A DNA stretch of 37,622 bases from Candidatus Dormiibacterota bacterium (lineage in GTDB: Bacteria > Chloroflexota > Dormibacteria > Aeolococcales > Aeolococcaceae). Below, in pieces: positions 2,735 through 30,400 of the stretch. The position numbers were made by a program, and so were the translations under genes. The stretch spans positions 11,442 to 49,063 of the forward strand of contig PKWB01000183.1 in assembly GCA_003131685.1 (NCBI GenBank). The letters are read 5' to 3'. Position 1 is the stretch's first letter. The number at the start of each line of letters is the position of its first letter. The notes below the pieces were generated by a model. It was not told the origin of the DNA. It worked only from the letters and a program-made list of their open reading frames with translations, and ran no database searches.

Positions 2735-4170
2735 GAGCTCTTGTCAACTCCTGTGGAAATTCTTCCAGGCGAGTCGGTGAGTTGAACTATGCGGCAGCAC
2801 CCTCCGTGTTCGGTTGACGTTGCAGCTTGCCGTCGACGAAGCCTTCGCCGGCGATCAGGAGGAGCAGCTGGTTGGGGCCGTTGATGGCGCGCCAATTCAA
2901 GCTCAGTCGGGTCACCAGCTTGAAGACCAGGTAGAGCGCGTTCTCGCGCACCCGCATGCGCTTGGCCGCGTCGGTGCGCAGGCGCACGCCGGCGAAGATG
3001 CTCTCGATGGGGTTGCTGGTGCGCAGATGCGTCCAGTGCTCTTCGGGGAAGTCGTAGAAGGCGACGAAGTCCTCCCAGTCGCGCTCCAGACAGGCGGCCG
3101 CATCCGCTTGCCCTTGCAAGCGCAGCTGCTGACAGAGCGCAGCCCGAAGCTGTGTGCACTCGGCCCGGGTCGGCGCCGTGTACAGCGCATGCAGCTGCTT
3201 GCTCGTCGCCGCGTGCAGGCGCCGGGGCAGCTTGTCGAGCACGTTGAGACGGCGATGGTTCCAACAGCGCTGATGCCGGGTGCTGGGAAACACCTGATCG
3301 AGCGCAGCCCACAAGCCGAGCGCGCCGTCAGCGACTGCGAGCAGGGGCGCTTCCTCCAGCCCGCGATCGCGGAGCCCGCGGAGCACACCCGTCCACGAGG
3401 CGGTGCTCTCGCGGTAGCCCTCGTCCATGGCCAGCAACTCCTTGCGCCCGTCGGCAGTCACGCCGATGACGATCAGCATCGCGGTCTTCTCGGCCTCAAG
3501 CCCCGCCTTGAGATAGAGACCGTCGGCGAACAGGTACACGTAGCGCTCGGTGAGCGGCCGGCAGCGCCAGAGCTGATACTCGTCCCCCCACTCCTGCTTG
3601 AGCCGCAGGATGCTGCTCGGCGAGAGCGCCGCGCTGCCACCCACCAGCTCGCGGAACACCGGCTCGAAGTCACCGGTGGCCAAGCCCTCGAGGTACAAGC
3701 GGGCGAGCAGCCGCGCCTGGGTCGCGGAGCGACGCTCATAGCGGCCGACGATTGCCGACGCGAAGGGCTCCGCACCGACCGGAACATCGCGCACTCGCGG
3801 CTGCCGGATCGCCACCGCACCCATGCCAGTGCCCACGGTCCGCTCGGGCGCGTAGCCGTTGCGGTAGCCACGGAACTCGGCGCCGCGCTGATAGTGGACG
3901 CGGCCGAGGAACTCCTCGCGTTCGATCTCGAGAGCACGGGCCAACATCTGGCGCGCTCCCTCTCGCGCCACCGCTTCGAGGGTGTCGTCGGGCGCCGGAA
4001 CCGGCGCAGTCGGGGGCAGAACTTGATACCTTGCAGACACGGCGTACCTCCAGGACGACCCGTTGGCGCGGGCCGGTTTGTTTGTTGAGATTCCTGGAAG
4101 GCTACGCCGTCTTCATGCCCGGCTCGGCCGAGCTGTCAGTGGCGATTTCCACAAGTTCTGAAATTAGCTC
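2735..4170 (-). mobile_element. IS256-family insertion sequence, about 1436 bp, apparently complete
   Basis: Left end GAGCTCTTGTCAACTCCTGTGGAAAT (2735-2760) matches the reverse complement of the right end, GAGCTAATTTCAGAACTTGTGGAAAT (4145-4170), at about 18/26 positions. Flanked by a perfect 8-bp direct repeat CCGACGCG (2727-2734 and 4171-4178). Contains a full-length transposase. Confidence 0.93.
2787..4040 (-). CDS. IS256-family (mutator type) transposase
   Basis: 417 aa with LFADGLYLK, AMLIVIGVTADGRKELLAMDEGYRES, VADGALGLWAALDQVFPSTRHQRCWNHRRLNVLDKLP and RTSNPIESIFAGVRLRTDAAKRM, typical of the mutator/IS256 DDE transposases. Confidence 0.95.
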   Translation of the reverse strand: MSARYQVLPPTAPVPAPDDTLEAVAREGARQMLARALEIEREEFLGRVHYQRGAEFRGYRNGYAPERTVGTGMGAVAIRQPRVRDVPVGAEPFASAIVGRYERRSATQARLLARLYLEGLATGDFEPVFRELVGGSAALSPSSILRLKQEWGDEYQLWRCRPLTERYVYLFADGLYLKAGLEAEKTAMLIVIGVTADGRKELLAMDEGYRESTASWTGVLRGLRDRGLEEAPLLAVADGALGLWAALDQVFPSTRHQRCWNHRRLNVLDKLPRRLHAATSKQLHALYTAPTRAECTQLRAALCQQLRLQGQADAAACLERDWEDFVAFYDFPEEHWTHLRTSNPIESIFAGVRLRTDAAKRMRVRENALYLVFKLVTRLSLNWRAINGPNQLLLLIAGEGFVDGKLQRQPNTEGAAA

Positions 4171-4178
4171 CCGACGCG
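4171..4178. repeat. 8-bp target site duplication CCGACGCG, right copy
   Basis: Identical to 2727-2734. Confidence 0.9.
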
Positions 4179-4279
4179 ATTCAAAGAGATTCCATCACGC
4201 GCGCTCTAGTCGTCATTCGAACCACTTTCCGAGGGAAACGACTCCAAATCGAACTCGGCACTCATCGGGAGATCAGTAC

Positions 4280-4325
4280 TAGTCTGGGGGACCAGGGGTC
4301 GCAGGTTCGAGTCCTGTCTCCCCGA
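4280..4325 (+). other. tRNA-Pro(GGG) 3' fragment, probable att-site scar
   Basis: TAGTCTGGGGGACCAGGGGTCGCAGGTTCGAGTCCTGTCTCCCCGA reads as anticodon loop CT-GGG-GG, variable loop, T arm GCAGG-TTCGAGT-CCTGT and 3' acceptor strand CTCCCCG plus discriminator A. No matching 5' acceptor (CGGGGAG) or D-arm lies upstream. Confidence 0.8.
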
Positions 4326-5756: not shown

Positions 5757-6935
5757 TCAACGAAAGTCTGCATCCTGTCGTGGCCACGGCGAAGCAGACG
5801 AAGCTCCAATCATTTCACGACGCCGACTATGCAAGCGCACGACGCGTAGCAGCGGATCCTCGTAATATCGGACCTCGTCATCTGCGAGTGATCGCCAGTC
5901 GACCGAACCTAACGTGCCGGTCTCCAGCTCCGCCCAATTCCGTTGATTTGCCTCCTGCACACGGTCGAAGTCTGTTGGCGCATCTCCAACGAACCACAGA
6001 TACGAGATCGCGGATCGCGCTGCCGTCAGGCTCTCGCGAAGCTCGAGCGCGTCCCGGATCGCAAACGTCGGTGGCCGCTCGCTCACCTGAAGCAACGTTT
6101 CGAGCTCATACCCCGCAAACGCGATGACATACAGGAGCACAAGCTCAGAGCTGAAGTGGTCATAGCGCGGGGCTCGGTCGAAGTCCATGTGCCGCCCGTA
6201 CAGCGTTCGATAGTGATCGTTGAGTGGGTGGACGAAAGCGCTCAGGAAGCGATAGTGCACCTTGAGACGGAGCAGATCCTCAGTGGTCGCAAGCTCATTC
6301 ATCCGCAAGTTGGCAAGGAGCGCATCCCAGCGAAGCGCGGTGCGATACATAGCGTGCTGTTCCTTCGCGTGCCGCTCGCGGTCTCGCCTCCCTGATCCCG
6401 TAGGAAGAAGTCGCTCCTGGTCCTTCGAAGGCATGACGAACGGCTGGAATTGCTGAAGCAGAAAGTAGTAGACCGAAAGGACCTGACTCTCATTGCCGGA
6501 CGTCGATGAGACGAGGCCGTGCAACTCGAGTCGCACCATCCCCGTCGTTGGATTTCGTTCCATTCGATGAATGTGCCTAGTACCCTCGGCCTTCGCGCGC
6601 CAATCCCGCCTCCAATCTTCGAATGTCTCGAGAGGGACCTCAGCGATCTGCCGAACGTACTTGGACGCGAGGCACAGGAGCCGATCGAAGACGATCTGCT
6701 CAAGCGCAGGTCGCAGGAGGCAGAAGGACTGCCCGTACGCATCGCGACCCGCGAGTTCGATCGCTGCACCCAGTTGCTCGGCCAGCGTTGACACGCGCTC
6801 AACGTAGGTCCGATGTTGGCCATAGGCGATCTCGCCGGTCTCAATTCTCTGAGCGAAGGCGCTGAGGTCTAGAACGAACTCTCGCGCGTGTAGCAAGAGC
6901 GCCTGGTGCTCCGCCTCGAAGGGTGTATTGCTCAC
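5757..6935 (-). CDS. Hypothetical protein (392 aa), mostly helical
   Basis: Long ORF with protein-like composition (RPALEQIVFDRLLCLASKYV...FLSAFVHPLNDHYRTLYG). No firm family. Confidence 0.75.
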   Translation of the reverse strand: MSNTPFEAEHQALLLHAREFVLDLSAFAQRIETGEIAYGQHRTYVERVSTLAEQLGAAIELAGRDAYGQSFCLLRPALEQIVFDRLLCLASKYVRQIAEVPLETFEDWRRDWRAKAEGTRHIHRMERNPTTGMVRLELHGLVSSTSGNESQVLSVYYFLLQQFQPFVMPSKDQERLLPTGSGRRDRERHAKEQHAMYRTALRWDALLANLRMNELATTEDLLRLKVHYRFLSAFVHPLNDHYRTLYGRHMDFDRAPRYDHFSSELVLLYVIAFAGYELETLLQVSERPPTFAIRDALELRESLTAARSAISYLWFVGDAPTDFDRVQEANQRNWAELETGTLGSVDWRSLADDEVRYYEDPLLRVVRLHSRRREMIGASSASPWPRQDADFR

Positions 6936-7416: not shown

Positions 7417-7581
7417 CTACCTGAGTACCTTCTGAACGCCCCATCCCACTAGGACGGTGGCTCCCAGGCTCAGCACGGTCGCGAGGGCGGGCTCATGACG
7501 AAAGACGCGGTGAATGACCAAGCTCACCTCTTTGTTGATGATCTCGTCAGCGATCCATTCGCCACAGACAGGACAGAACAT
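7417..7581 (-). CDS. 54-aa CxxC zinc-ribbon-like protein with C-terminal hydrophobic segment
   Basis: MFCPVCGEWIADEIINKEVSLVIHRVFRHEPALATVLSLGATVLVGWGVQKVLR, preceded by a Shine-Dalgarno (GTGAGGAGCCTCAAC-ATG on the minus strand). Confidence 0.65.
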   Translation of the reverse strand: MFCPVCGEWIADEIINKEVSLVIHRVFRHEPALATVLSLGATVLVGWGVQKVLR

Positions 7582-7633
7582 GTTGAGGCTCCTCACTCCG
7601 CTCCGAACCCCGGAGCCGTCTTCGTTATAGGCC

Positions 7634-7694
7634 AAGTTTAGCCATACCTAAACTTCGTGTCAAGCTGACACTCGGGTTTAGGGAAAGGTAAACT
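7634..7694. promoter_or_regulatory. Divergent back-to-back promoters with twin operators GTTTA-N8-TAAAC
   Basis: Operator 1 AAGTTTAG-CCATAC-CTAAACTT (7634-7655); operator 2 GTTTA-GGGAAAGG-TAAAC (7676-7693); centres 40 bp apart. Plus promoter CTGACA (7665-7670)-N18-TAAACT (7689-7694). Minus promoter TTGACA (7663-7658)-N17-TAAACT (7640-7635). The two -35s form the palindrome GTGTCA-AGC-TGACAC (7657-7671). Confidence 0.75.
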
Positions 7695-7701
7695 CTGGCA
7701 C

Positions 7702-8118
7702 GTGGAGACGATGTGGGCCTACGAGCTCCCGAGCTGTCCTCCTGAGCAGTTGATCTTCGGCGGCACCTACCTTCGGGTTCAGGCAATGGTCGATCGGCTA
7801 GGGAACGCATCGGCAGCAGCCTGGGTAGCCGCTCTGGACGTCTTGAATCACGTCCGGCTCGATGCCGTCTGCGCTCTCGTGGAGCGGCGTCTCGTTGCCG
7901 GCAGGTCACTCATCAGCCTCGCCGTCGCCTTACCAGCTTCAGCCCTCGGATTGTGGCAACTCCTCCTCTCACTCCCCGGCTATGCCGTGCAGGCTTCGCT
8001 GATCTTCTGGCCCGCTGGCGCCGTGTGGTGGGCTGTCGCCGGCATTTCGTCGACCCAGGTGAGTGATCGCCAGGTCTCAATGTGGGATGACGCCGTCAGC
8101 GACTGGTTACGGAGGTAA
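7702..8118 (+). CDS. Unknown 138-aa protein with hydrophobic central region; first gene of TAC-like operon (candidate toxin/effector)
   Basis: GTG start at 7702, alternative ATG at 7711. Only 3 bp before the HTH gene. Hydrophobic stretch SLISLAVALPASALGLWQLLLSLPGYAVQASLIFWPAGAVWWAVAGI. Toxin role is inferred only from position. Confidence 0.6.
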   Translation: METMWAYELPSCPPEQLIFGGTYLRVQAMVDRLGNASAAAWVAALDVLNHVRLDAVCALVERRLVAGRSLISLAVALPASALGLWQLLLSLPGYAVQASLIFWPAGAVWWAVAGISSTQVSDRQVSMWDDAVSDWLRR

Positions 8119-8121
8119 TAC

Positions 8122-8526
8122 ATGGCCGGGGATTCGGCGACAAGCGAATATACGCGCCTGGTAGCTGAAGAAACGCTCTGTAGAGAAGCGCACGTGGTCT
8201 TACAAGAGGCGGTGTCACAAGCCGGCGTATCCCAGAAGCAGATTGCGCATCGTTTAGGCCTTTCGGCTGGTCGAGTGAGTCAGATCATGTCTGGATCCGA
8301 AAACCTGACATTGCGATCATTCGCGGCGGTGGCATGGGCCATCGGCCTTGCCTTAACGATCGATTGGCATTTGATATCAGCACCTCAGGACCTCGGACAG
8401 CCTTCAGCAGATCTACTTGATCTCACCAAGCACGGACGTATTGAAATGCCAACCTCGACCCTCCCAGATATCGACACTGTGTTTGAGCAGGCACCGGCCG
8501 CTGAGCAAAGCGCACTCGCGGCCTAG
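8122..8526 (+). CDS. Xre-type helix-turn-helix protein with C-terminal extension (candidate antitoxin)
   Basis: HVVLQEAVSQAGVSQKQIAHRLGLSAGRVSQIMSGSENLTLRSFAAVAWAIGLALTIDW is a clear HTH_3 pattern, followed by about 50 aa of acidic, non-HTH tail. SD (GGAGG) lies in the end of the preceding gene. Confidence 0.88.
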   Translation: MAGDSATSEYTRLVAEETLCREAHVVLQEAVSQAGVSQKQIAHRLGLSAGRVSQIMSGSENLTLRSFAAVAWAIGLALTIDWHLISAPQDLGQPSADLLDLTKHGRIEMPTSTLPDIDTVFEQAPAAEQSALAA

Positions 8527-8531
8527 GCGCA

Positions 8532-9062
8532 ATGACGTCCGTCCCGCAAAACACAAATTCCGCCGACGTGCCGTCGCTCGCGTCGGCGGCTCGGGCGAGT
8601 GCACGGGCGTCAAGCGCACCTGAATACGATCCTGAGTCAGTCAGTCGGGTCGCTGGTGGGGTTCGTATCCGTGTCATCGACTTGGTCGCCGCGCACTTCT
8701 CGAGGAAGGACGAAACGGCGCTCCCAGTTTCGGCGATCGATGTGCCCGATCCCGAGCTGGGAATCGATGTGAAGTGGACGCTAGCGGACGACGCCAAACA
8801 GCTCGGATGCCTCATCACGTTCGCGACCATATTCAGAGAGGCGGAACCGTATCGGCTCACTGCTCAGTTTCGCCTGGTGTACGACCTCGAGCTAACTCAG
8901 CCTCCAGAGCGCGAGGACCTAAACCAATTCGCTAACTGGAACGCGGTCTTTAATGCTTGGCCATACTGGCGCGAGTACCTGTCTAGCACGCTCAACCGTG
9001 CGCGCCTTCCGTACTATTTGGTTCCTGTGATGGGCGTGCCGCTCCTGAAGAAATCGGAATAG
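8532..9062 (+). CDS. SecB-like protein (candidate TAC chaperone)
   Basis: YRLTAQFRLVYDLELTQPPEREDLNQFANWNAVFNAWPYWREYLSSTLNRARLPYYLVPVMGVPLLKK resembles the SecB pattern (FA...NA.F..WPYwReyls......LP...L..). Starts 5 bp after the HTH gene stop. Confidence 0.75.
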   Translation: MTSVPQNTNSADVPSLASAARASARASSAPEYDPESVSRVAGGVRIRVIDLVAAHFSRKDETALPVSAIDVPDPELGIDVKWTLADDAKQLGCLITFATIFREAEPYRLTAQFRLVYDLELTQPPEREDLNQFANWNAVFNAWPYWREYLSSTLNRARLPYYLVPVMGVPLLKKSE

Positions 9063-9213
9063 ATCAGAGAGCTTCGCGAAGTGGCAGGTCTAACTACGCC
9101 CCAAGTGGCACCAAGACAAGGATGGTCACGGCCCCTCACCGTCAAGGCAATCGACTGGGCCCGCGTCGCCTGACAGAAATTTGAGCGTCACCGACGTGAT
9201 TGCGGCGCCCTCG

Positions 9214-9242
9214 TTGACAACCCCTTGCAGCCCCTCTAAGAT
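9214..9242 (+). promoter_or_regulatory. Sigma70-like promoter TTGACA-N17-TAAGAT upstream of RHS gene 1
   Basis: TTGACA 9214-9219, 17-nt spacer, TAAGAT 9237-9242. Confidence 0.6.
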
Positions 9243-9456
9243 GCGCGTCGAGTGTGATTGCGCTGACCCGCGCGAGCGGATTTCCACTCACTTTCGGTTT
9301 CGCTATGTCCCCCCTGGCGAACCGGATCAGGAAGGGGGCGCGGAGGTCGGCGCGATGCATGACGGGCTTGATCGCAGTGCGCTTCGTTCATTGGTTCCCG
9401 AACATGCGGCGAGCGCTGATCGCACCGACCGTGATGGAGCCAAACGGGCCGTTGGC

Positions 9457-12400
9457 ATGTCTCCGCTACGTCGATTGGGAATGCTGCTCGCAGCGTGCCT
9501 TGTTGTTGTCGCCAGTCAATTCGGCGGAGCGAGCGTCGCGGATGCGTCAGGCGCACCTCCGTCGCATTCTCTTGCAACACCTCGCGGTGGTGTGGGTCCA
9601 TCGAATCCCATGGCCGCACCTCGTGTTGCCGGCGCCCACTCCACGGTTAAGGTGCACGAACCGCGTTCCAAGCTTGGCGGGCGCGTCGTCCCAGATTTGT
9701 CCGGCGGCCCGAAAGCAGGCGGCAGGCTCGGGAGCATCGCGTGCGTGACTTCGAGTGACTGCTGGGCCGTCGGCGACTACAATGCCGGCCCTGTAACGGC
9801 GACTCTCATCGAGCAATACAACGGCAGCGCATGGAATCTTGTCGCGAGCGCCAACGCGGCGAGCTCTTGGAATTCACTGAATGCGGTAACGTGTGTCAGC
9901 GCAAGTGACTGCTGGGCGGTCGGCGAATACGATGTGCCTGGCGTGAACCAGCAGGCCTCCCTGATCGAGCAGTACAACGGCACGGCTTGGAGCGTCGTGC
10001 CCAGTCCCAATCCTGGCCAATACTACAACGTCCTTTACGGTGTGGCCTGCTCAAGCGCCAGCACTTGCTGGGCGGTTGGGTGGGAGGAAGGGAGCGCTCC
10101 GCAAAGCCTTATCGAGGAGTACAGCGGCGGCAGTTGGTCACTGGTTAGTAGCCCTGATCCCGGGGAGGTCAACTGGCTCTACGGGATCACGTGTGTCAAC
10201 GCGAACGACTGCTGGGCCGTCGGCCAATACCAAACGCCGCCTTCTCACATCGTCACTGAACTCATCGTTCAGTGGAATGGGAGTTCGTGGACATCGGTCA
10301 CTGGCGCGAACGCCTCGGGCGGACCGCAGCTCAACGGCGTGGCGTGCGTTAGCACGACCGATTGCTGGGCTGTCGGTGAAGCCGACAACGGCAATACTCT
10401 TCTACCGTTGGTCGAGCAGTACAACGGCACCAGTTGGTCGGTTGTGGCGAGCCCCAATCCGGGAGGCACGTATAACTATCTCAACTCCGTGGCATGTGTC
10501 ACTGCTAGCGAATGCTGGGCGACCGGATATTACGTCGGCTCGCCCGGTGACAATGCCCTGATCGAACAATACAACGGAACGACGTGGGCGATCGTGTCCA
10601 GTCCGAGCCCCAACTACGACAACTTTCTCCAGAGCGTGGTTTGCTTGACCGCGACGAACTGCTGGACCGTCGGCTACGGCGATATTGGTCCAGGTAACGA
10701 TGATTTACCACTCGTCGAGCAGTACAACGGCACGAGCTGGTCGGTCGTTGCTAGCCCCAACCAGAGTGGTGCGCCAGTTGGCGGCGGCATCACGCCTCCG
10801 GAGACGTATGGGGGCACCAACTGTAGCTGCGCGAACGCAGATCTCGGTCAGAACAATGCTGGGGACCCCGTTAGTACTGGGTACGGCAACCTGACGGAAG
10901 CGTATGTGGAACTCTCCATTCCCGGTAGGGGGACTCCGCTCGGGTACAACCGCACATATAACTCGCTCGTTGCTCTGTCCGCATCCACAAGCGGACCGCT
11001 CGGCTACGGCTGGACGTTCAACGGACTGATGTCGCTTAGCCAACCTGGGGGGAGCGGTCCCGTGACCATCACTCAGGAGGGCGGGGCGCAGGTCGTCTTC
11101 AACCAGACGGGCTCTACCTATGCGCCGGCAGCACCCAGGGTGATTGCAACCCTGACACAGAGCGGAGGGATCTGGACGTTCGTTCGCTTCGCCCAGGACA
11201 CCTACACATTCTCCGCCTCGGGGCAGCTCCTCACCGCGACGGATCGCAACGGCTATCCGACGACTTATGGATACAACGGTAGTAGCCAACTGACGAGCAT
11301 CACCGATAGCGAAGGCCGAAAGCTATCAATCGGATGGACCGGTACGCACATCACTACCGTCACCGATGCGAACGTGACGCCAAATCGCGTCGTGACGTTT
11401 GAATACAACGACGGGAACGGCAACCTCACTGACGTCATCGATGTCAACGGCGGTCACACGCACTTTGTTTACAACAGCGTCCACGAGCTGACCAATGTCT
11501 TCGATCCAAACTGCTACGCCGCTGGCAGCGCTTGCAACAGTGGCAACGGCCTCGTCAATACGTACTACAGCACCGGGCAAATCCACACGCAACAGGATCA
11601 ACTCGGCCGCACCACGACGTTTACCTACGCAGGAGATCCAAGCTCCGCAGCCGGCGGGACGACCACGATTCTCAATCCCAAGGGAAACACCACTCTCGAC
11701 ACCTACCAGTACGGTCTCTTGACGGAGGAGACTCAGGGGTACGGCACACCTGCTGCTGCCACGTGGCAATACTTCTACGACCCGTTCACGACGGCGCTCT
11801 CGAGTGAAACCGATCCGAATGGCCACACCACCGTGTTTGGCTACGACAGCAGCGGAAATCGGTTGTACTCGGTCGATCCCCTGGGCCGCACCACCAGTGC
11901 CACCTACAACTCGTTCAACGAGCCTCTGACCAAGACGGATGGTGATGGCATCACCACGACGTACACCTACAGCGCTCATGGCGATGTCGCATCCGTCTCG
12001 ACGCCTCTCGTGCCGAGCAGTCCGCAACAGTATCAGCTCACGAAGTATTTCTATGCAGACTCCTCACATCCGGGAGATCTCACCTCGATGGTGGATCCGA
12101 ACGGGAACACCTGGACGTACAGTTACGACGCGAATGGGGATCGAATGACCGTCAAAGACCTCATTGGAAACATCTCTACCACCTGTTACAACGCGATCGG
12201 CTGGAAGACCGCCACCTATCCACCTCGTGCGGGCAGCATCACGTGCGTGACCCCACCCCAAAGCTCCCCGTACTACACAACCTACAGTTACGTCCAAATC
12301 AACGGCCAAACCGATGAGTTTGGGGATGTACAGACGGTCACTGATCCCCTCGGCCATACCACCACCTATGTCTACGACGCCAACCGCAACCTCGTGAGCG

Positions 12401-15123
12401 AGACCGATGGCGATAGCAACACGACAACATACGTCTATGACCTCGCCAATGAGCAGACTCAGATCAAACGGGCAGACAGCCCACAGACGACAGTTATAAC
12501 GAACTACAACCTCGACGGGACGGTGAATTACAAGGAGAACGGCAAGGGCTACAGGACGCTCACCTACGGCTACGACAGCCTAGGTCGCATGACCAGCGAG
12601 GTGGATGCGGACAACAACACGACCACGTATACCCTCGACGGTGTAGGCAATGTGCTTACCACGCAGCTTCCCGGGGGCAGCTGTCCATCAACGGCATGTA
12701 TCACAAACACCTACGACGCTGATGACGAGCTGAAAACGGTCACGTATTCAGACGGCGTCACACCCAACGTCACCAACGCCACCTACGACAGCGATGGTCG
12801 TCGCCTGACCATGACCGACGGAACGGGCACCACGATTGATGGATGGGACTCGTTGGGCCGGCTCATGTCTGAGCAGAACGGCGCCGGCGTCACGGTTGGT
12901 TATGGATATGACCTCATGGGCCACGTTACGAGCCTCACGTACCCCGGCGCTCTGACCGTGACCTATGGATACGACACCACCGAGCGCCTCACCACGGCCA
13001 AGGACTGGCTAGGCAACACGACCACCTACACGCCCAACGCCGATTCGTTCGACACCTCGATCGCCTACCAGAACGGAGTCACCGCCACTCAGACTCCTGA
13101 TAACGCGGACCGACTGATGGGGATTACCGACAAGCACAGCTCAACGACGCTTGCGAGCATGACCTACACCCGCGATGGCAACAACCAACTGACCGGAGAG
13201 ACTGACAGCGGGGTCCCACAGGTTGCCCAGCCATACACGTATTCCCCGCTCAATCAGGTCAAGGTGGCGGGCTCTGCCAGCTACGGATATGACGCCGCCG
13301 ACAACCTGACCACGTTGACCAACGGCACCAACCAGCTCTTCGATCCCGCAGATGAACTGTGCTGGTCGGCGTCCACGACCGGAACGAGCTGCACCACGCC
13401 GCCTTCGGGAGCGACCACGTACACGTATGACAACCGTGGGGACCGGACCAAGAGCACCACCGGCTCGGCCTCGATCACGTATGGCTACGACGAGGCCAGC
13501 CGACTCAGCTCGTATACCAGCGCGACCGAGACCGCCACCTACAAATACGACGGCGACGGGCTGCGCATGAGCAAGACCGTGAACGGGGTGACCACGCCGT
13601 TCACCTGGGACACTGCCGCTTCGACGCCGCTCCTGCTCAGTGACGGCACTACTGACTACATTTACGGCGCCAACGGCACACCGATCGAACAGGAGACCGT
13701 GCGTCCGGCCATCAGTCTGGTCGGCGAGAGCAGCGCCAGCGGTGCGACTGGAACCACCAGTCTGACCGTCAACCTCCCGTCCGGGGTACAGGCCGGCGAT
13801 CAGGTATTCGTTGACTCCACGCAGTCATCGGGCACCGTGGTCACGGCACCCTCGACGTACACGCTCGTCAAGAGTGTGGCCTCCGGGGGGACCACGCCGA
13901 AGGCTGGTACCTCAGTGTTTCGCCACACCGTCGTCCCCGGAGACACGTCGGTGATCCTCACCTACAGCGGTACCACATCGGTGAAAGCGGTGGTGGTTGC
14001 CGACTACCGCGGGGTGGATCCGAGCCTACCGGTGGACGTGGTCGCCAGCGCGTCGACCGCCGGCGGCACCACCGTCGTGGCTCCGTCGATCTCCGCTGCT
14101 TACGCCAACGACCAGCTGCTGATCTTCCAGGGTGCCCGTGGGACTTTCTCGTCGTCTACCTGGACCGCCCCGAGCGGAACAACCGAGCAGGTGCAGATCA
14201 ACTCGCGAGCGAACGTCTCTGCGGGGCTTGCCGATCAGCCCCTGAGCGCGTCTGGACCGACGGGGACGAGAACGTCTACGTTCGGGGTGAGCGCCAACCT
14301 CACCACCGTGATACTGGCGATCCCGCAACCGCCGAACGTGCTCTTCTACCAGACCGATCAACTCGGGAGTACGCGACTGCTGACCGACAGCGCGGGGGTG
14401 GTGCGGGGGACCTTCAGCTACGATGCGTATGGCAACCTCATCGGATCAACGGGCTCGTACTCGACGCCACTCGGATGGACTGGGCAATACCGCGACGCTG
14501 AATCTGAGCTTGTCTACCTTCGGGCCCGATACTACGATCCGATCACCGGACAGTTCCTTTCTCGCGATCCGATGCTAACCTCAAGTCGCGAGCCATATGC
14601 GTATACAGCTGACGATCCACTCAACGCGAGTGATCCCAGCGGGGAACTCCTCGACTACACCATCAGTTACGGCCTGGGAGAGTTCGGACCCAATGCTGCC
14701 GTCATCGCGATGCACATGCTACAGAGCGATCCAGCCGCCTTCTTCCCGTTTCCGATTCAGGCCAACAACGGCAATGGCAGCATCGCTTCCGGAAAACAAT
14801 TCAGCCTCTCCCCTGTGGCCGGTCCTGCTTGGCAGGTCACAGTCTCGCAAATGACGTCGACCTCCTTCACTTTTGCCGCGGGCTTCCCACATGGGGATAT
14901 GCCAGGGTCGACAGTTACGTTTTCAACGAGTGTCACACGTCAGGGCAACCTCGTATTCAGCATTCATGGGATCGCGAATCCCTGGCTAAATCTGATTCCC
15001 GGTGCCGGCATATCGTTCTTCGGTAGCACTGTGCAGAACTGGTACTGGCAGATCGCCCAACTGCTTTGGCTTCCGATGGGCTACAAGCTGCAAAGCGCCA
15101 TGCAAGCGTGTGAGGTTGGATGA
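9457..15123 (+). CDS. Secreted RHS/YD-repeat protein 1 (about 1888 aa): signal peptide, seven-repeat propeller-like region, RHS shell, variable C-terminal domain
   Basis: Signal-like MSPLRRLGMLLAACLVVVASQFGGASVADAS at 9457. Seven repeats ...C-x5-C-W-x-[VT]-G...EQYNGTSWSVVASPNPG (9721-10776). Many YD repeats. RHS core DQLGSTRLLTDSAG...YDAYGNLIGSTG...GQYRDAESELVYLRARYYDPITGQFLSRDP...DPSG. Start moved from ORF start 9181 because a promoter sits at 9214-9242. Confidence 0.93.
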   Translation: MSPLRRLGMLLAACLVVVASQFGGASVADASGAPPSHSLATPRGGVGPSNPMAAPRVAGAHSTVKVHEPRSKLGGRVVPDLSGGPKAGGRLGSIACVTSSDCWAVGDYNAGPVTATLIEQYNGSAWNLVASANAASSWNSLNAVTCVSASDCWAVGEYDVPGVNQQASLIEQYNGTAWSVVPSPNPGQYYNVLYGVACSSASTCWAVGWEEGSAPQSLIEEYSGGSWSLVSSPDPGEVNWLYGITCVNANDCWAVGQYQTPPSHIVTELIVQWNGSSWTSVTGANASGGPQLNGVACVSTTDCWAVGEADNGNTLLPLVEQYNGTSWSVVASPNPGGTYNYLNSVACVTASECWATGYYVGSPGDNALIEQYNGTTWAIVSSPSPNYDNFLQSVVCLTATNCWTVGYGDIGPGNDDLPLVEQYNGTSWSVVASPNQSGAPVGGGITPPETYGGTNCSCANADLGQNNAGDPVSTGYGNLTEAYVELSIPGRGTPLGYNRTYNSLVALSASTSGPLGYGWTFNGLMSLSQPGGSGPVTITQEGGAQVVFNQTGSTYAPAAPRVIATLTQSGGIWTFVRFAQDTYTFSASGQLLTATDRNGYPTTYGYNGSSQLTSITDSEGRKLSIGWTGTHITTVTDANVTPNRVVTFEYNDGNGNLTDVIDVNGGHTHFVYNSVHELTNVFDPNCYAAGSACNSGNGLVNTYYSTGQIHTQQDQLGRTTTFTYAGDPSSAAGGTTTILNPKGNTTLDTYQYGLLTEETQGYGTPAAATWQYFYDPFTTALSSETDPNGHTTVFGYDSSGNRLYSVDPLGRTTSATYNSFNEPLTKTDGDGITTTYTYSAHGDVASVSTPLVPSSPQQYQLTKYFYADSSHPGDLTSMVDPNGNTWTYSYDANGDRMTVKDLIGNISTTCYNAIGWKTATYPPRAGSITCVTPPQSSPYYTTYSYVQINGQTDEFGDVQTVTDPLGHTTTYVYDANRNLVSETDGDSNTTTYVYDLANEQTQIKRADSPQTTVITNYNLDGTVNYKENGKGYRTLTYGYDSLGRMTSEVDADNNTTTYTLDGVGNVLTTQLPGGSCPSTACITNTYDADDELKTVTYSDGVTPNVTNATYDSDGRRLTMTDGTGTTIDGWDSLGRLMSEQNGAGVTVGYGYDLMGHVTSLTYPGALTVTYGYDTTERLTTAKDWLGNTTTYTPNADSFDTSIAYQNGVTATQTPDNADRLMGITDKHSSTTLASMTYTRDGNNQLTGETDSGVPQVAQPYTYSPLNQVKVAGSASYGYDAADNLTTLTNGTNQLFDPADELCWSASTTGTSCTTPPSGATTYTYDNRGDRTKSTTGSASITYGYDEASRLSSYTSATETATYKYDGDGLRMSKTVNGVTTPFTWDTAASTPLLLSDGTTDYIYGANGTPIEQETVRPAISLVGESSASGATGTTSLTVNLPSGVQAGDQVFVDSTQSSGTVVTAPSTYTLVKSVASGGTTPKAGTSVFRHTVVPGDTSVILTYSGTTSVKAVVVADYRGVDPSLPVDVVASASTAGGTTVVAPSISAAYANDQLLIFQGARGTFSSSTWTAPSGTTEQVQINSRANVSAGLADQPLSASGPTGTRTSTFGVSANLTTVILAIPQPPNVLFYQTDQLGSTRLLTDSAGVVRGTFSYDAYGNLIGSTGSYSTPLGWTGQYRDAESELVYLRARYYDPITGQFLSRDPMLTSSREPYAYTADDPLNASDPSGELLDYTISYGLGEFGPNAAVIAMHMLQSDPAAFFPFPIQANNGNGSIASGKQFSLSPVAGPAWQVTVSQMTSTSFTFAAGFPHGDMPGSTVTFSTSVTRQGNLVFSIHGIANPWLNLIPGAGISFFGSTVQNWYWQIAQLLWLPMGYKLQSAMQACEVG

Positions 15124-20961: not shown

Positions 20962-21447
20962 TCGATGCGGCGTCCACGCGTCAAGACGCGTTTCGTCACC
21001 AGCCAACCGTACCGGCGGCTGCAACAGTCTTTCGGGTGGCACGGCTAAGGACAAGCGCAAATGCACAGCGTCCTCGTTGGCTGCCTTCTCATGATCTGCA
21101 CCTTCTCGCCTCACGATTCCTGACGCGCATCATGCGCGCGGCTCGTGAGAGCGCGGCATCGTCGGATGACTTGTGACAGGTTGCCCAGAGTCGACAGCTA
21201 GCGGCAAGAGATTTGAGCGCTGGTACGTGGCTTGGCGTCTCGGCTGCACGGCGGGTCGAACTATTCGCCAGGAATCCGAGTGGGTTGATAACTGTTACAG
21301 AGACGCCATATCACGTGGAAGGTCGTCACTACGCTTGCGGGCACTGACCTTGCGCTGTGACGGCGTTCTCGTCACGGGGCGGAAATGCGAGACGGAGGGA
21401 TTCCCTGTGTCCATAGCTGTGAAGGCCCCGGTCAAGGCTCACGCGTG

Positions 21448-24400
21448 ATGGCGCTGCCGCGCTCGAAGCAGGCAGGTAGACAGTTCGGACAAGCACACAC
21501 TGGGGTTGCGCCGCAGCGCAGCTGGAAGCAGGCGTTGGCAGTAGTTGCGAGTATCGCGTCGGCGTGCACGGGATTCTTCGTCTTCGCGCCGGCCGCGGTA
21601 GCCAAAGCTGATGTCGCGCAGCGAACCAGCTGGAACACAGCGACGCATCAGCTCTATCGTCTCGAGGGCAACAACGGCAGTACCTGGGTACCGCTTGATC
21701 CGAGCAAGCTGGTGCTCTCTGTTACACCAACAGTGGCGTCGACGGCCGTCTTGTCGGCTTTTGTCGATGTGGAAAGCTCGACAAGCCTCAACGCCGAGAT
21801 CGGTATCGCGGTGAACGGAATCGTCGTGGCCTATAAGGATGGGGGCGAGTACACGGGTAGTTCTCCAGATCCTGTCTACGTGCAACACCCCATGCCCATG
21901 AATGCCAACTCCCCATACACCCTGGAGTTGATGTGGCGAGCCACTTCAGCCGAAGGGCCGGGCGTGTTCCTTGAAGCGGGCGATCCGGTGCCGACCTATG
22001 GTCCGGGATTCTCTCCAAGCACTCTCAATGCTCTGCTAACCCCGAATCCGGACACCCTGACCCCCTACGCAGAATCGACGGGAACTCAGCCACTCCAGTT
22101 CACCACCAGCTCCACAACCTGGCAGTTGATGGATAGCAGTGTGGAGACCAGCTTCACAACCCCGACGGGGAGCAGCAACTTCTCCACCCTGTTGACCGCC
22201 AGTGCTGACCTGTATTCGTCGTCGGCCTATTCGTATTCGGATATGGGCATCTGCCTCGTGGCGGCGGCTACAGTGAATAGCAGCTGCAACAGCGGGGCAA
22301 ACATTATTGCGGCGAAGACCAGCGGTGCGGCAGCGGGGGCGATGCCGATCGCGTCGCTGGTAGAAGCAACCCAAACTTTGGCGCCAAACACCACCTACAC
22401 GATGGGAATCTTCTGGCAATCCGAAGCCGGGCATGCCATCTATGCGGGAGTGGGGACCACCGGGGCGTGGTCGCTGGTGAGCCTGATCGGGCAGATGACG
22501 CCGACCTCCGACAACGAGTTGTCCACCGTCGCAACGACGGGAATCCAAACCCGCACGTATTCGACCAGCGACGACGGGACCGCGTGGACGACACTTGGGT
22601 CCGAGACCTTCAGCCTCACCCCGACGGTCAACGTCTTGACCTACTTGACCGCGAACGCGACGCTGGCAATCAACACCGGGAGCGACCCCATCGACTACGC
22701 CATCTGCGTCGCCTCAGGCACGGGGAACAGCTGCGACGCCGCCGGCGACAACATCGTTGCGGAGACGGCTTCGCGGGTGTTGCCGCCGACGCCTGACGCG
22801 GCGTATCTGCAAATCCCGGTCTTCATGAGCGCGGGAACCGCATACACGGTGACCCTGGAATGGCGAGCGGGCTTCTCGATGAGCGGGACCGAGTCGATGA
22901 CGGCTGGACGCACGATCTCCGCGGGAGCCTTTGTCGAGCAAAGCACCCTGACGAGTCTCGAGGTACCGTACTCGGCTCCCTCGGCTCCACCGTCGGCATC
23001 AGCGACGGCCGGGAATGGGCAAGCTACCGTCACCTGGACCGCGCCGACGACGAGCCCTGGCAGCCCACTGAGCGGCTACGCCATCACGCCATACCTCGGT
23101 GCTACGGCGTTGGAGAGCTTGCGCGTGGGGAATATCACGTCGTTGGTGGTGCCCAACCTCGCCAACGGTCAGCAGTACAGCTTTACCGTCGCCGGGGTAA
23201 ACGGCGTGGGTCCTGGGGCGATCTTCACTACTGGGACGGTTACGCCGGGACTCCCCGGAGCACCGACGGGGGTGACCATCGGCATGCGCGGCAATGGTTT
23301 TGAGAACCTTTCATGGACCGCGCCGACGGCACCGGGTGCATCAGCCATCACGGGTTACCTGATCACTCCATTCATTGCTGGGGTGGCCCAGGCGACGACC
23401 ACCCTTTGGGGCACGGCGACAAGCAACACGATGACCGGGCTCACCGACGGGACCAATTACACGTTCGGCGTCGCGGCGATCAACGTGTTCGGCACCGGCC
23501 TGGCCGGGAACTCGGGGTCCAATAATCCGTACAAGCAGACCCCCGGTGCGCCCACGGGCGTGAGCGGCGCCGCTGGCAACGCTCAGGCCACCATCGGCTG
23601 GACGGCGCCCGCGAACAATGGCGGCGCTGCGATTTCCTCGTACACCATCACGCCATACATCGCCGGGGTTGCGCAGTCGACCACGAGTGCGAGTGCGAGC
23701 CCTGCAACCGTCACCGGGTTGACCAACGGCACCACGTACACATTCACTGTGGCGGCGGTTAACAGTATCGGGACGGGTGCAGCATCATCCAACAGTTGGG
23801 CAGTGATCCCCGCCACGACGGCGATTGTCCCCACCCTCACCATGGCTGTGGACGAAGGGACTGCTGCGACCTACGCCATCGGGACGGAGGTGACCTACAC
23901 AGCGACGATAGCCTCAAATGCCGGGACCGCGACGACGGCCAGCTTCAGCGACCCGCTCCCGACCGGAGTGAGCGGCACGGGGGGGCTCGTCGAGGTCAAT
24001 GGGGCAGCCTGTACAGGTGGCACCACCTGTAGCGCAACCGCTACGGCGATCTCCGTCGCCGGTTTGACGGTACCCGCCACTGGGAACGTGGTGGTCACCT
24101 ACTCGTTGACGGTGACTGGCTCGCTGTCGCAGTGCGCAAAGGAGCCGGACAACGCGAGCGTAACTCTGGCCGGCGGCAACAGCGTTGGGGCGTTCGCGCA
24201 ATTCACCGCATGCGACAGCGGTCTCGGCGCCGCGGCCTGGGACTCTTTCATTCCCCAGACACTGGGTGACGGGGGCAGTGCCCGCGTCAATCCCGCGAAC
24301 GGCAACCTAGTGGTGACGCAGACCGACGCCATTCCGATGGCGTTGCATGGCAGCCTGAGCTTCCACCTCTCCCGGACCTATAACAGCGAAGACAAGGATC

Positions 24401-27400
24401 TGGCAGGCCTGCCTGAACCAGTCGGCAACGGCTGGATCGTAAGCTTCGTCGACGCTGGCCCACAGCCCGGTGGTGTGGCCCTGATCCTCCCTGCGATCGA
24501 GTCATATGCGAATCCGACCCCGATCACCATGGTGGACGGGAGCGGTACGAGATACGTGTATACCCCGTCCGCACTGAGCAGCGTGATCAACGTCGGCAGC
24601 CTCAGCACCACGGGCCCGCTGGCAACGGTGATCCCAAACAACCTTCCCAAGACGAGCGGCTACAACCAACGCTGCATAGATGAGGAATACAACCCTCCAA
24701 CCGGTCTGCACGTCTCGATGTGGCGATACGTCGAGACCATGGGTACCTGCGCCACGCTCAGCACGTCGACCGATCTAGTCCTCGGGTATGTCGCAATCGG
24801 GACGGACCGTATCCGTAGGGAGTACAACGCGAACGGTGAGCTGATCAACCTCATGGACGCAGTCGGTAACACCGTCTTCTACACCTACACCAGCGGTCAG
24901 TTGACTGCGGTGACGGAGACCGGCAACAGCCGCAAGTTCAAGCTCGCCTATGCGGGTTCGACTGTCACAATCACCGATCCGGGGGGTGAACGCACCGTCT
25001 ACACGCTGGCGGCCAATAACGATCTGAACTCGGTCGCCAATCCCGACGGGACGTCGCTCGCTTACACCTACGGAACGATGTGCAATGGCGACTCGTATAA
25101 GCAGCTGTGCTCGGCCACGGATGGACGGGCCAACGCAACCAACTTCACCTACCAGGTCGCCCCCAACGGACCGCCCATGATCGCCACCATCGTCGATCGC
25201 AATGGCGATACCACAACGATTACCTACAACTCGACCAACGTCACCGCTGATCGGGGGTCGGAGCGGACCGCCTTTGCCGCGATCGATGCGTCTGGGCGAG
25301 TGGGTGAAATCGACGCTGGCAGCACCGCCAACATGTGGCTGACCCGTGCCTTCTATGGATGGGACACGTCGGCGCTGGGCTGCCGGCAACCGGACGCTGG
25401 CGTTGACAACGACCTCTGCTACATCGTCCGGCGCGGGTTGACCGCCGGTGCACCTGACCGGGTGACCGATTACACCTACGGCGATGAAGGTCAGATGCTC
25501 AGCCAACGCGACGTGGACTACCCGATCGATCTGTACACCACAGCCGGGTACCAGGAGCAGTACTTCGAGGCAGGTGTGAGCGTCTCGACATACACCGACA
25601 CTGTGGCTGGCTCGGGCTCGGTCACATCGACGACGCAGACCGGGGGCCGGCGTGACGCTGCCACCCTCTTCGATGTGACCACTCAGATCCAGTCGCTGAC
25701 GCCGAACGGGAACGCAGCGGGGTCGGGCTACGGAGCCTACGAGGCTACGTATTCGGTTGACAACAATGCGGCCGTGTCCACGAACACGGTCAACGGCGCG
25801 TCCGCGCTTTGTAGTTCACCCGCAGCGCCGGTCGCCAATAGCGGGTTGCTGTGCCAGATCAAGGGTGCGGCGTATGACACTAACGGTGATCATCCGCTCA
25901 CCAATTACACGTATAACCCAGACGGAAGTCGGGCGACGATGGTCACTCCGATCGAGACGGCTGGCTTGCTTACCACGCACTACACCTATACGTACTATCA
26001 GAATACCGACCTCGATCTGTCCGGGACGACTTCGGCGGGAGGATGGTTGAAGGGGATCACCGATCCCACGAACAACTTCACCGCGTTCGCCTACGACGCC
26101 GAAGGACACCAGGTGCGGTCCTGGGACCGCGACGCGACTGCCGCTAGCGGAGGCACGCCGCTCTCGTCTTCGAATTGGAGCAGTCTCAGCTCGGGCGTCG
26201 CCCCGCTGTACTACACCGAGAAGCTCTACACCAAGGGCGCGGACACGCTCGCGTCAACGTTCTCGGCTCCTGGCCGCCATGTTCTGGCGTCGCGCACCCA
26301 AATGGACGACTGGACGACCGAAATCATCGATCCGAACGGCAATATGGATGGAACGCAGTCCCCGAAGGGGACGCTTGGCGATCCTACGTCGAGTCCTCGG
26401 TGCCCACAATCAACGACGACCCAGACCTTCGACACGTGCATGACGTACGACAAAGATGACAACCTGACGAGCACGCTCACGCCGATGGAGGCGTACGAGA
26501 GCTATTGGATGAGCACCGTCCAATACCCAACCACGTACGTTTACGACGTATTCGACAACCGTATCGCCGTAACCGACCCGAACGGGAACGTCACGGTGAC
26601 AACCTATGACCATGTCAATCGACCAATAACGGCGATCTGGACCATGGCAGCCTCAGGCGCGATGCCAACACCGAGCAACTGTCGGATCTCGACCAGCGGC
26701 GACGCCCCGATCCCCTCAGGCCGAATTCTCTGCCAGTCGGCGACAGCATACGACGGCACCGGCAACACGATCTCCTCAACAGATGGCAACGGAAACCCGA
26801 CTTACACCTTGTACGACGCAGATCATCGGGTCGTCTCCAGCATCGTTCCGCGTGGCGGGGTCTTTTCCAACGTTGTCACCACCACGCTCTACGACCCGGA
26901 CGGTCGAGCCACAGACGTCTGTTCGGGGCGCGAGCTTAGTGAAGGCAGTGCGGAAGGGTTCGTTTGCGGTGTCAATGCGACCTATGCTACCCACGCTCAA
27001 TACTTTCCGGACGGTCTTGTCAGCGAGACATACGATTACCAAACCGCGGGGACCCAGCTGAAGACGATCTATACCTACGACCCAGACGGCAACAAGGCGA
27101 CCGTCGAGAACGCGGACTCGGTCTTTACGACTTACTCGTTTTCTGAACTCGACCGCATGTCGCAAACCTCGGTGCCGCAGACAAGTGCGCAGACGGACGT
27201 GACCGTGTACGCGTATGACCCGTCAGGAGACGTCCTTACTGAGCATCAGCAGACCCACACCGGCACAGTGCTCATACGAACCGTGTACACCTATGACTTC
27301 GACCATCGGGTGATCGAGACGATACAGGGAGCGAGCTCGGATACGAGCACGGCTGACTACAACTCGGCCACAGGGACCGACGTCAGGACCTGGAATCTCT

Positions 27401-30400
27401 ACGATCCTGACGGCAACGTGACGGAGCAGTATCAGCCCAACGCCTTCGCCGGCAGTGGGTCTGTCGGGAGCCCAGACGCTGATTACGCAACCGCCGCCGC
27501 ATATAACGCTGACGACCAGCGAGTAGCGGTCTACCGACCACGCTACGACACGAATGCCGCCCATACGCCGCTCTTGACCAATCCCGTCGGGACTACGGGG
27601 ACCCAGGAGTCTCAGTGTCCGACCGGCGGAACACACCTCTACGGATTTCCGTCCACCACAGGGGTCTGCACAACTTCGTACGTGTACGATCCGAACGGCA
27701 ATGTCGCTCGAGTGAACTGGCCGACGCAGGTGAGTGGTGGTGATGCGAACCCCTTCACGACCTACACGTACACCGACACCAACTTGGTGCTTACCGACAA
27801 TATCGCGAACCCGAACACCGGCTTCGGCGGAGGAGGGCGGGTTGCGGCCGAGACTTACGCGTACGACGCTGACGGAAAGCAAGTGGACGTCACCGACGCA
27901 GTCGGGATATCGACACAAACCGGATACACAAATGATGAGCTTGTGGCCACGTCTATGGCAACGCCGAATGCGTCGATAACGCACAACACAAGCTATCTGT
28001 ACGACGCTGCCGGGGAGCTGATCGACACCACGGACGCGATGGGCAACAGCACGCTCACCTCCTACTACCCGAATGGCCTGACGTACACGGTGTCAGACGC
28101 TCTGGGCGACGAGACGAAGTACGCTTATGACGGCGTCGGGAACCCGGTTGAAGTCTGGTCTCCGGACGCCATCGCGGCTGCTTCGGCCGACCCAACTGGT
28201 AGGCCCACGTATAACGTATACACAGAGAACAATCTCCTCGAAGCGACCCTAATTCCGTATACGGCGGCCAACCTTCAGCGGGCGGTCTGCTATGCCTACG
28301 ACGAGGCCGGACGCAAGACAGGTGAGGGTGGTTGGTTGAACGGTACCGGGAGCTGGCAGACCGGTGAGCCGAGTGGTTGCAGCTCCGGACTACCTGCCGG
28401 TTCGTTCGCGTTCACGACGCTTGCCGATGGCCGCCTGGCCACGGAGACTGGGCGTAATGGGAGCAGCACGCTCACTTACACGTACGACGCCAATGGCAAT
28501 CAGATCACTGCCATCGACTCGAGTGTTCCGCGAACGACGACGAATACGTACTATGCCGACAATCTCATGAGGACAAACCAAGACTACACTGCAGGTCGCG
28601 TTACCGACTACACGTATGACGGAGCGGGCAAAGTCACCCTTAGAAAGAGCTCGCAGAGCGGCTATCCAACGTATACGGACACGATGACGTATAACGACGC
28701 CGATCTCGAAGCGAGCGAGACCAACAGCGTCACGGGCACCACCGAAACGTGGTTCTATGACGCGAATGGCCGCCTCGGCTCCGGCTCATATAGCGGAGTG
28801 ACCCTTGGCAACGGAGATCGAGAGATTCTCTACTATGCGAATGACGGGACCCTCGATGATTCTTCAGTCTGGAACAGCCTGCCACCCATCCCATCGTCGC
28901 TGTCGTACTTTGTGCAAACGTTCGACGGCGACTTCCGCGTCACAAGTGACGGCTGCACGTGCCTCAACACTACGGGCACAACGAACATCGGTCACACCTT
29001 CACCTACCAATACGACGCAGCAAGCCGGCTGATCTTTATCAACGCCTCGGGAGGGTACGCGGCCTTCCAAACGTACGACCCAAGCGGGAACCGGATCACG
29101 CACGACGACGTGACCACCGACGCCTACACGAACTACACATACAACGGCGACAACAGCATTGCCACGACAATCCTGAGCGGGACGACGCCGCTCACGGCGA
29201 CCTATAACGTCGCCGGTGTAATGACGGGCGACGGATGTAAGAGCTGGACCCTCGACACCTTTGATCGGGCCGCCACACTCGCGAAGGCCACAAATGCACC
29301 CGCCGCGTGCCCTACAGCCCCGACGGCGACAACGTACTCGTATGACGCGAATGGCGACATGGTCTCCCAGAAGATTGGATCGACGACGAGTACGATTCAG
29401 TACGACGCCGTCACCAACACACCGATGGTCGAGGTGACCGGCAGCACGGTTACGGGCTACAGTCTGGATGCGAATGGAACTCCGATCGTGGTCACACAAG
29501 GGTCAACGACAGTGTATCCAGTCGATGATCCGAAGGGCGATGCGTCCACAATCATCGCGAGCAACGGCAACTGGCCAACGTGTCAGATTCAGTACGATCC
29601 GTATGGAACCGTTGCGTTCAGCCAGCCCCTGGGTAACGTCTGCGAGAATGGGAGCACGTTTGACGACCTGCTCTATCAGAACAATCGGGTGGATAGTCAG
29701 AGCGGCGACTACCAACTTGGATCGCGAACTTACGACCCGAGCAAGAACAGCTTCCTCTCGCCGGACCATTTCGAACTGGGGACGCCGGCGCAGGATCTAT
29801 CCATTGCGGTGGATCCTCTCACCGCCAACGCCTATGCGTTCGTCAACGGGGATCCAGTCAACCGCTTCGACCCGACGGGGCACAGTTACACAACGGGGAA
29901 CGACCCCTCCGATAGTCAAGGGAGTACGACGTGCGCGACCTGCTACACTCAGCCTACCCAGTATGTGCAGCAGACGTCTCATGGACCTGTGTGTGGGACA
30001 TCCTGCCAGCGAGCGTCACGCGAAGCACGAGCGCGCGCCGTGGCGGCCGATGAGGCGCGGCGTGCCGCGGCCCGGCACAAAGCGGCTGGTGGCGGTGCAT
30101 ATGGTTTCACAGCTCCACAGATCGCGTACTTGTCCTCCCAGCAGTTCCTCAAGTCCTATCTGAGCGCCGAAGATTACGCGTGCTCCTACCAAAGTGATTA
30201 CGCAGCTTGCGGCGCAATGGGTTCGATGCATCCCGGTCAGAACCTGATGCAATGTATATTGATATATGGCCCGAGTTGCGACAACATCGCAAGCCTCGGT
30301 AACCTCGGGATGTTTCTCCAGGTCGGTGGGGGCGCGCTTACCGCGTACGCACCGAATGTGGGGGCGCCAGATGCGCTCGCCAGAGATGGCGAGGAATTGG

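What the first reader, a model, noticed from the sequence alone, without database searches (positions are those of the whole stretch)
7702..9062. Candidate toxin-antitoxin-chaperone (TAC) operon with an unrecognised first gene
Seen: three genes on one strand separated by 3 and 5 bp: a 138-aa unknown protein, an Xre-type HTH protein, and a protein with SecB-like sequence (FANWNAVFNAWPYWREYLSSTLNRARLPYYLVPV). Established: TAC modules such as HigBA with SecB-like Rv1957 in M. tuberculosis, and CmdTAC in E. coli, pair a toxin, a chaperone-dependent antitoxin and a dedicated SecB-like chaperone, in contexts of stress response and phage defence. Inference: this is a TAC-type module. The first gene does not look like a RelE/HigB, MqsR or ADP-ribosyltransferase toxin by eye, so the toxin may be a new type.
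Basis: partly seen in the sequence, partly recalled or inferred. Interest (0 to 1): 0.87.

Follow-up and report, generated by a model that had tools for sequence, protein, structure and literature searches.

The report
Chaperone toxin-antitoxin operon with disarmed toxin
A soil bacterium carries a three-gene toxin-antitoxin-chaperone operon whose toxin still has the shape of a known RNA-cutting toxin but has lost every key cutting residue, so the module may have become a chaperone-controlled gene switch rather than a poison.

Summary
In detail: three + strand genes (7702-8118, 8122-8526, 8532-9062) with 3- and 5-bp gaps. They form a toxin-antitoxin-chaperone (TAC) module. Gene 3 has a SecB-type fold closest to Rv1957 of the M. 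tuberculosis TAC. Gene 2 is an Xre/HigA-type regulator ending in -ALAA, like this genome's own tmRNA tag. Relatives of gene 3 in several phyla follow a toxin and an HTH gene. Gene 1 is not a new toxin type: intermediate sequences, profile comparison and an AlphaFold model show a diverged HigB (Gp49, RelE fold) nearest Rv1955. What is unusual is that it and its one close relative (another Dormibacterota genome, 45% identity) have lost all three basic residues (R68, R77, K95 by Rv1955 numbering) that are invariant in the 15 other TAC toxins. The pI falls to 5-6.5, yet the gene stays open and constrained. Two conserved operators overlie back-to-back promoters, facing a different divergent gene set in each genome (in the relative, a ubiquitin-like E2/JAB/E1 operon). 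I read it as a TAC with a disarmed toxin, possibly reused as a chaperone-gated transcription switch. A ParE-like change of target, or a tolerated relic, is not excluded.

The parts
7636..7653 (.). operator 1, GTTTAGCCATACCTAAAC; overlaps the -10 box of a leftward promoter (TTGACA 7663-7658, 17 nt, TAAACT 7640-7635)
   Evidence: the same motif lies upstream of TAC operons of several phyla
7676..7693 (.). operator 2, GTTTAGGGAAAGGTAAAC; overlaps the -10 box of the rightward promoter (CTGACA 7665-7670, 18 nt, TAAACT 7689-7694)
7702..8118 (+). gene 1: diverged HigB/Gp49 (RelE-fold) toxin homologue without the catalytic residues; alternative start ATG 7711
   Evidence: HMM 40.7 bits vs best of 4000 shuffles 7.4 in the same run (9.6 in a separate shuffle run); AF2 pLDDT 90; Foldseek top hit Rv1955; residue table
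8122..8526 (+). gene 2: Xre/HigA-type HTH antitoxin/repressor with a roughly 55-aa C-terminal tail ending -SALAA
   Evidence: HTH_3 6e-5; HigA antidote model 0.0028, below its cut-off; alignment A5; C-terminal comparison; own tmRNA tag ANNAPLALAA
8532..9062 (+). gene 3: SecB-like TAC chaperone
   Evidence: PADLOC PD-T4-9_C (the system later named CmdTAC) 0.0033; profile hit to Rv1957 7.6e-13; AF2 pLDDT 85; Foldseek Rv1957 5.5e-9, E. coli SecB 7e-6
7417..7635 (-). divergent ORF that the leftward promoter would drive; likely start ATG at 7581 (54 aa, CPVC plus a hydrophobic helix) behind AGGAG
   Evidence: sequence; a 44% identical relative in G033; membership in the module is inferred

Best explanation
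A TAC-type operon. Shown by sequence and model: gene 3 is a SecB-like TAC chaperone, gene 2 a HigA-like HTH protein with a ClpX-type C-terminus, and gene 1 a HigB-fold protein that has lost the residues needed for mRNA cleavage. Inferred: gene 2, with gene 1 as co-repressor or structural partner, binds two operators and represses both its own operon and the divergent genes. Gene 3 holds the gene 2 tail and shields its -ALAA end from ClpXP. When stress or a phage protein draws the chaperone away, gene 2 is degraded and both promoters fire. The output would then be transcription of the neighbouring operon rather than RNase toxicity. My estimates: TAC module about 0.93; gene 1 is HigB-derived about 0.95; no HigB RNase activity about 0.85; transcription switch as the main role about 0.4.
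For: Chaperone: Rv1957 by profile and by fold; no canonical SecB in 41 genomes, this one and 40 relatives, so a general export role is unlikely. Toxin homology. Residues R68/R77/K95 are invariant as [KR]/R/K in 15 of 15 other TAC toxins and are L/S/deleted in both Dormibacterota copies; alanine at these positions abolishes Rv1955 toxicity (PMC9098466). Gene 1 pI is 5.2 and 6.6 against 7.7-11.3 in the others. Constraint: pN 0.385 against pS 0.743, random pairing 0.72. Antitoxin ends -ALAA, the last four residues of the genome's tmRNA tag; 13 of 17 TAC antitoxins end in A against 13 of 90 background ORFs; CmdA ends LAA and HigA1 ends VA, and both are degraded by ClpP or ClpXP. Operators; two operators with a leftward promoter whose -10 lies in the outer operator occur only in the two toxin-disarmed loci of 17 TAC promoters.
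Against: The switch role rests on promoter-consensus matches and on two loci of one lineage, so it is one evolutionary event. The divergent genes differ between the two genomes and lack an obvious shared function. The stem branch of gene 1 is long (2.11 in the toxin tree against 0.64 in the chaperone tree) and gene 1 keeps changing faster relative to the chaperone than in intact operons, which fits relaxed constraint as well as a new role. Nothing experimental was done.
Confidence: 0.5

Rival explanations
1. Target switch: gene 1 is still a toxin but acts on something other than mRNA, as ParE does on gyrase with the same fold and without the RelE residues.
For: ParE toxins share the fold and lack the catalytic residues (PMC11980606). 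The former active-site stretch carries new shared motifs in both copies (QLLL[ST]LPGY, WPAG, WAVAG[IA]SST), the operon is under constraint, and antitoxin, degron and chaperone are all kept.
Against: No sequence likeness to ParE was found; the conserved stretch is also beta-sheet core, and intact pairs are conserved there too.
Confidence: 0.27
2. Silenced relic: the toxin was lost by selection for harmlessness and the operon persists by its own regulation, without present use. M. tuberculosis HigB2 and HigB3 are non-toxic homologues explained in that way.
For: HigB2/HigB3 lack several key residues and are not toxic (PMC9098466); gene 1 shows faster change than intact toxins.
Against: Both copies are open at 45% identity with pN well below pS; gene 2, gene 3 and both operators are kept as well.
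Confidence: 0.17
3. Ordinary HigBAC: gene 1 still cleaves mRNA with residues placed elsewhere.
For: Same operon layout and fold.
Against: All three invariant basic residues are gone, there is a 2-aa deletion at K95, and the protein is acidic, unlike the ribosome-binding toxins.
Confidence: 0.06

Closest known systems
M. tuberculosis TAC, Rv1955-Rv1956-Rv1957 (HigB1-HigA1-SecB-TA)
   Same: Gene order, SecB-like chaperone (best profile and fold match), HTH antitoxin with hydrophobic C-terminal degron, RelE-fold toxin with Rv1955 as best fold match.
   Different: Rv1955 is an active ribosome-dependent RNase; R68, R77 and K95 are replaced or deleted here and the charge is reversed. Two operators and a divergent promoter here (the Rv1955 promoter was not examined).
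Gp49-type higBAC modules (E. coli O112ab:H26 and C496, abortive infection)
   Same: Gp49/HigB family toxin, HigA, SecB-like chaperone; the published E. coli C496 HigBAC is triggered by the lambda major tail protein (as reported in PMC11980606).
   Different: The toxin here has no HigB active site; no phage trigger is known.
CmdTAC (PD-T4-9)
   Same: SecB-like chaperone (weak profile match), antitoxin ending in LAA.
   Different: CmdT is an ADP-ribosyltransferase; gene 1 is a HigB-fold protein.
M. tuberculosis HigB2 and HigB3
   Same: Non-toxic HigB homologues lacking key residues, with an acidic C-terminal helix (PMC9098466).
   Different: The residues named as missing there (K58, N73, F93, K99, K113, R117) do not include R68, R77 or K95; from my own knowledge they have no chaperone gene.

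Membership tests
Toxin-antitoxin-chaperone (TAC) module | SecB-like chaperone encoded next to the TA pair | tested here: met
Toxin-antitoxin-chaperone (TAC) module | HTH (or MqsA/HicB) antitoxin in the same operon | tested here: met
Toxin-antitoxin-chaperone (TAC) module | Antitoxin C-terminal extension with a ClpX-type end | tested here: met
   ends -SALAA; 13 of 17 TAC antitoxins end in A
Toxin-antitoxin-chaperone (TAC) module | Chaperone-addiction (ChAD) segment in the antitoxin tail bound by the chaperone | tested here: inconclusive
   a 55-aa tail exists but ChADs share no sequence (PMC5105189); no complex was modelled
Toxin-antitoxin-chaperone (TAC) module | Toxin that is harmful unless antitoxin and chaperone are present | not testable with these tools
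   needs expression; the active-site loss argues against an RNase toxin
HigB/Gp49 (PF05973) toxin family | Sequence or fold homology | tested here: met
   profile of four TAC HigB-like toxins hits gene 1 at 40.7 bits, hhalign 96.5%, Foldseek Rv1955 prob 1.00, TM 0.58/0.65, E 0.012
HigB/Gp49 (PF05973) toxin family | Pfam Gp49 model above its cut-off | tested here: not met
   no Gp49 match for gene 1
HigB/Gp49 (PF05973) toxin family | Catalytic basic residues (Rv1955 R68, R77, K95) | tested here: not met
   L, S and a deletion
SecB (PF02556) | SecB fold | tested here: met
   E. coli SecB 7e-6 by Foldseek
SecB (PF02556) | Pfam SecB model match | tested here: not met
   no match for gene 3; only 2 of 19 relatives weakly, best 0.083
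CmdTAC | ADP-ribosyltransferase toxin | tested here: not met
   gene 1 is HigB-fold

The most novel reading that the evidence does not exclude
A TAC module whose toxin has been disarmed and which now serves as a chaperone-gated sensor and transcription switch: loss of the SecB-like chaperone to a phage or misfolded protein leads to ClpXP removal of the repressor and firing of a divergent operon (in the relative genome, a ubiquitin-like/E2/JAB/E1 operon of a kind linked to defence).
Probability: 0.35. Interest if true: 0.82.

Novelty: new variant of a known kind. Interest (0 to 1): 0.6.

Why it matters
TAC systems are known as toxin controllers whose chaperone can sense phage proteins. A TAC that keeps the sensor (chaperone), the degradable repressor and the operators but not the toxic activity would show that the sensing half can be separated from killing and used to control other genes. 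Even if the switch idea fails, gene 1 is a natural HigB without its active site and bears on whether RelE-fold proteins change target or are kept as co-repressors.

Tried and rejected
(a) A new toxin family for gene 1: rejected; intermediates from other TAC loci link it to HigB/Gp49. (b) Direct library hits for gene 1: only MalQ_N at 0.027, below cut-off and taken as chance. (c) Gene 3 as a general export SecB: no SecB in this genome and 40 relatives, and the locus context speaks against it. (d) Wider copies of the disarmed toxin: a search of 110 genomes of the class gave G000 and G030 only, other hits being noise at E 0.003-0.09; none in plasmids. Viral contigs gave no chaperone relative; in phages two weak SecB-like matches, in plasmids eight, Acinetobacter/Vibrio/Shewanella. 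(e) Pseudogene by sequencing error: rejected, two independent genomes share the losses. (f) dN/dS as a number: dS is saturated, so only pN against pS is quoted. (g) First genome-contig scan with the single protein found nothing; the alignment scan worked. (h) The K58 column is poorly aligned and is not used. (j) Structure predictions were capped at two, so no complex of gene 1 or 3 with gene 2 was modelled.

Full report
What was checked. The three ORFs, their strand and their 3- and 5-bp gaps are as described. The window lies in a 3.78-Mb, 76% complete metagenome genome.

Gene 3. Library models for SecB do not fire, but the PADLOC model of the PD-T4-9 chaperone (the system later named CmdTAC) does, weakly (0.0033). 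A profile of 19 relatives finds one solved structure, the TAC chaperone Rv1957, at 7.6e-13. The AlphaFold model (pLDDT 85) is closest to Rv1957 (5.5e-9) and then to E. coli and H. influenzae SecB (about 1e-5). The fetching patterns included FNAWPYW, so the invariance of that motif in alignment A4 is by selection and is not used as evidence. No canonical SecB was found in this genome or 40 relatives.

Neighbourhoods. Of 19 relatives from the genome collection, 16 have a Gp49/HigB-type toxin gene near by and an HTH gene (most of these sequences built the models used, but Pfam's Gp49 model independently matches 11 of the 14 toxins in A3). One more has a PF05015 HigB (L039) and one an MqsA antitoxin (L033); in one (L036) none was recognised. 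They come from Dormibacterota, Actinomycetota, Acidobacteriota, Planctomycetota, Gemmatimonadota and Binatota. This is the TAC arrangement. In the class of the window only 3 of 110 genomes carry it.

Gene 1. Alone it has no database relative. A profile of the HigB-like toxins of L025-L028 matches it at 40.7 bits and its relative in G030 at 66.7 bits, against at most 7.4 bits for 4000 shuffled copies in the same run (9.6 in an earlier run of shuffles); profile-profile probability is 96.5%. The AlphaFold model (pLDDT 90, pTM 0.83; the alignment contained intact toxins, which helps the fold) is nearest to Rv1955, the toxin of the M. tuberculosis TAC (prob 1.00, TM 0.58/0.65, E 0.012), followed by other HigB and RelE toxins. 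Gene 1 is therefore a HigB descendant.

Loss of the active site. Mapping the Rv1955 residues (PMC9098466) through the profile alignment: R68, R77 and K95 correspond to columns that hold [KR], R and K in all 15 other TAC toxins and L, S and a gap in both Dormibacterota copies. The two copies also share a 2-aa deletion at K95, E66 to Q, and a shift of pI from 7.7-11.3 to 5.2 and 6.6. In the toxin tree the two form one clade (100/100) on a stem of 2.11 inside the intact HigB clade; in the chaperone tree the same stem is 0.64. The loss is thus derived, older than the split of the two genomes' copies, and was accompanied by a burst of change. Since then the gene has stayed open: at 45% amino-acid identity pN is 0.385 and pS 0.743, with random codon pairing giving 0.72; the antitoxin gene is similar (0.371). 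Relative to the chaperone, gene 1 changes faster than in intact pairs, so constraint is real but partly relaxed.

Gene 2. It has an Xre-type HTH and a tail of about 55 residues ending -SALAA. The genome's tmRNA tag is ANNAPLALAA, so the antitoxin ends like the cell's own proteolysis tag. Of 17 TAC antitoxins 13 end in Ala against 13 of 90 long ORFs in the same loci (rough binomial P 1.6e-8; relatedness ignored). HigA1 ends VA and is degraded by ClpXP unless the chaperone holds it (PMC8165232); CmdA ends LAA and is degraded by ClpP (PMC11618068).

Control region. Two 18-bp palindromes GTTTA-N8-TAAAC lie at 7636 and 7676, with none expected in shuffles. The G030 operon has the same pair, with TTTAGCCATACCTAAA identical in operator 1. 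The motif with the same 8-bp spacing also precedes intact TAC toxins in L025, L027, L029, L037 and L038 exactly, and in L034, L040 and L042 with one mismatch, so it is probably the TAC autoregulatory operator. Only the two disarmed loci have two copies at the promoter, and only there does a leftward promoter have its -10 in the outer operator (TTGACA-17-TAAACT in the window, TTGACT-17-TAAAGT in G030). In G030 that promoter faces a multiubiquitin (4.6e-7), Prok-E2_E (2.5e-7), JAB-like (weak, 0.0071, below cut-off) and ThiF (1.7e-34) gene set; in the window it faces a 54-aa CPVC/helix ORF, then a DUF3892 gene and a 392-aa protein without a family. Flanks of the two operons are otherwise different at the DNA level (only two short repeats besides the operon).

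Interpretation. Shown: a TAC module with all non-toxin parts intact and a HigB-fold toxin without its catalytic residues. Inferred: the operon works as a chaperone-gated repressor of itself and of the divergent genes, or the toxin has a new target as ParE has, or it is a tolerated relic as proposed for HigB2/HigB3. I favour the switch, moderately, because operator number and promoter arrangement changed together with the loss of the active site; but this is a single lineage with two members.

Limits. Promoters are consensus matches. No complex was modelled and no expression data exist. The search for more disarmed copies was limited to 110 genomes of the class plus plasmids. In the papers held, one search for pseudotoxins in toxin-antitoxin systems gave nothing and one for catalytically inactive toxins gave two papers, not read, whose titles concern other systems; subscription papers were not covered.

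Noticed in passing
L050:5748-7740 (G030): Multiubiquitin, Prok-E2_E, JAB-like and ThiF genes start about 115 bp from, and divergent to, the TAC operon of the relative genome: a bacterial ubiquitin-like conjugation operon of the kind linked to phage defence.
   Followed up: partly
upstream of TAC toxins in L025, L027, L029, L037, L038 (exact), L034, L040, L042 (one mismatch): A palindrome STTTA-N8-TAAAS with fixed 8-bp spacing precedes TAC toxin genes across several phyla; it looks like a general HigA-TAC operator.
   Followed up: partly
L048:1131-1845 (own genome, contig C22): A second, canonical Gp49 toxin (5.4e-12) with an HTH gene and no chaperone seen in the 3.3-kb locus, beside an integrase-like gene; its FGKK motif is intact.
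   Followed up: no
L031:3650-5231: In this Acidobacteria MAG the order is HTH antitoxin, toxin, chaperone, unlike the usual toxin, antitoxin, chaperone.
   Followed up: no
window 9181-15123 and 21385-30735: Two very large YD-repeat/RHS-like proteins (1980 and 3116 aa) downstream of the operon.
   Followed up: no
window 2787-4040: Mutator-family transposase (2.2e-63) upstream; two short stretches near it (2432-2520, 4176-4325) recur in the G030 contig at 82-88% identity, so they may be mobile-element remnants.
   Followed up: no
window 5757-6935: A 392-aa protein without any Pfam or PADLOC match, on the divergent strand behind DUF3892 and the 54-aa ORF.
   Followed up: no
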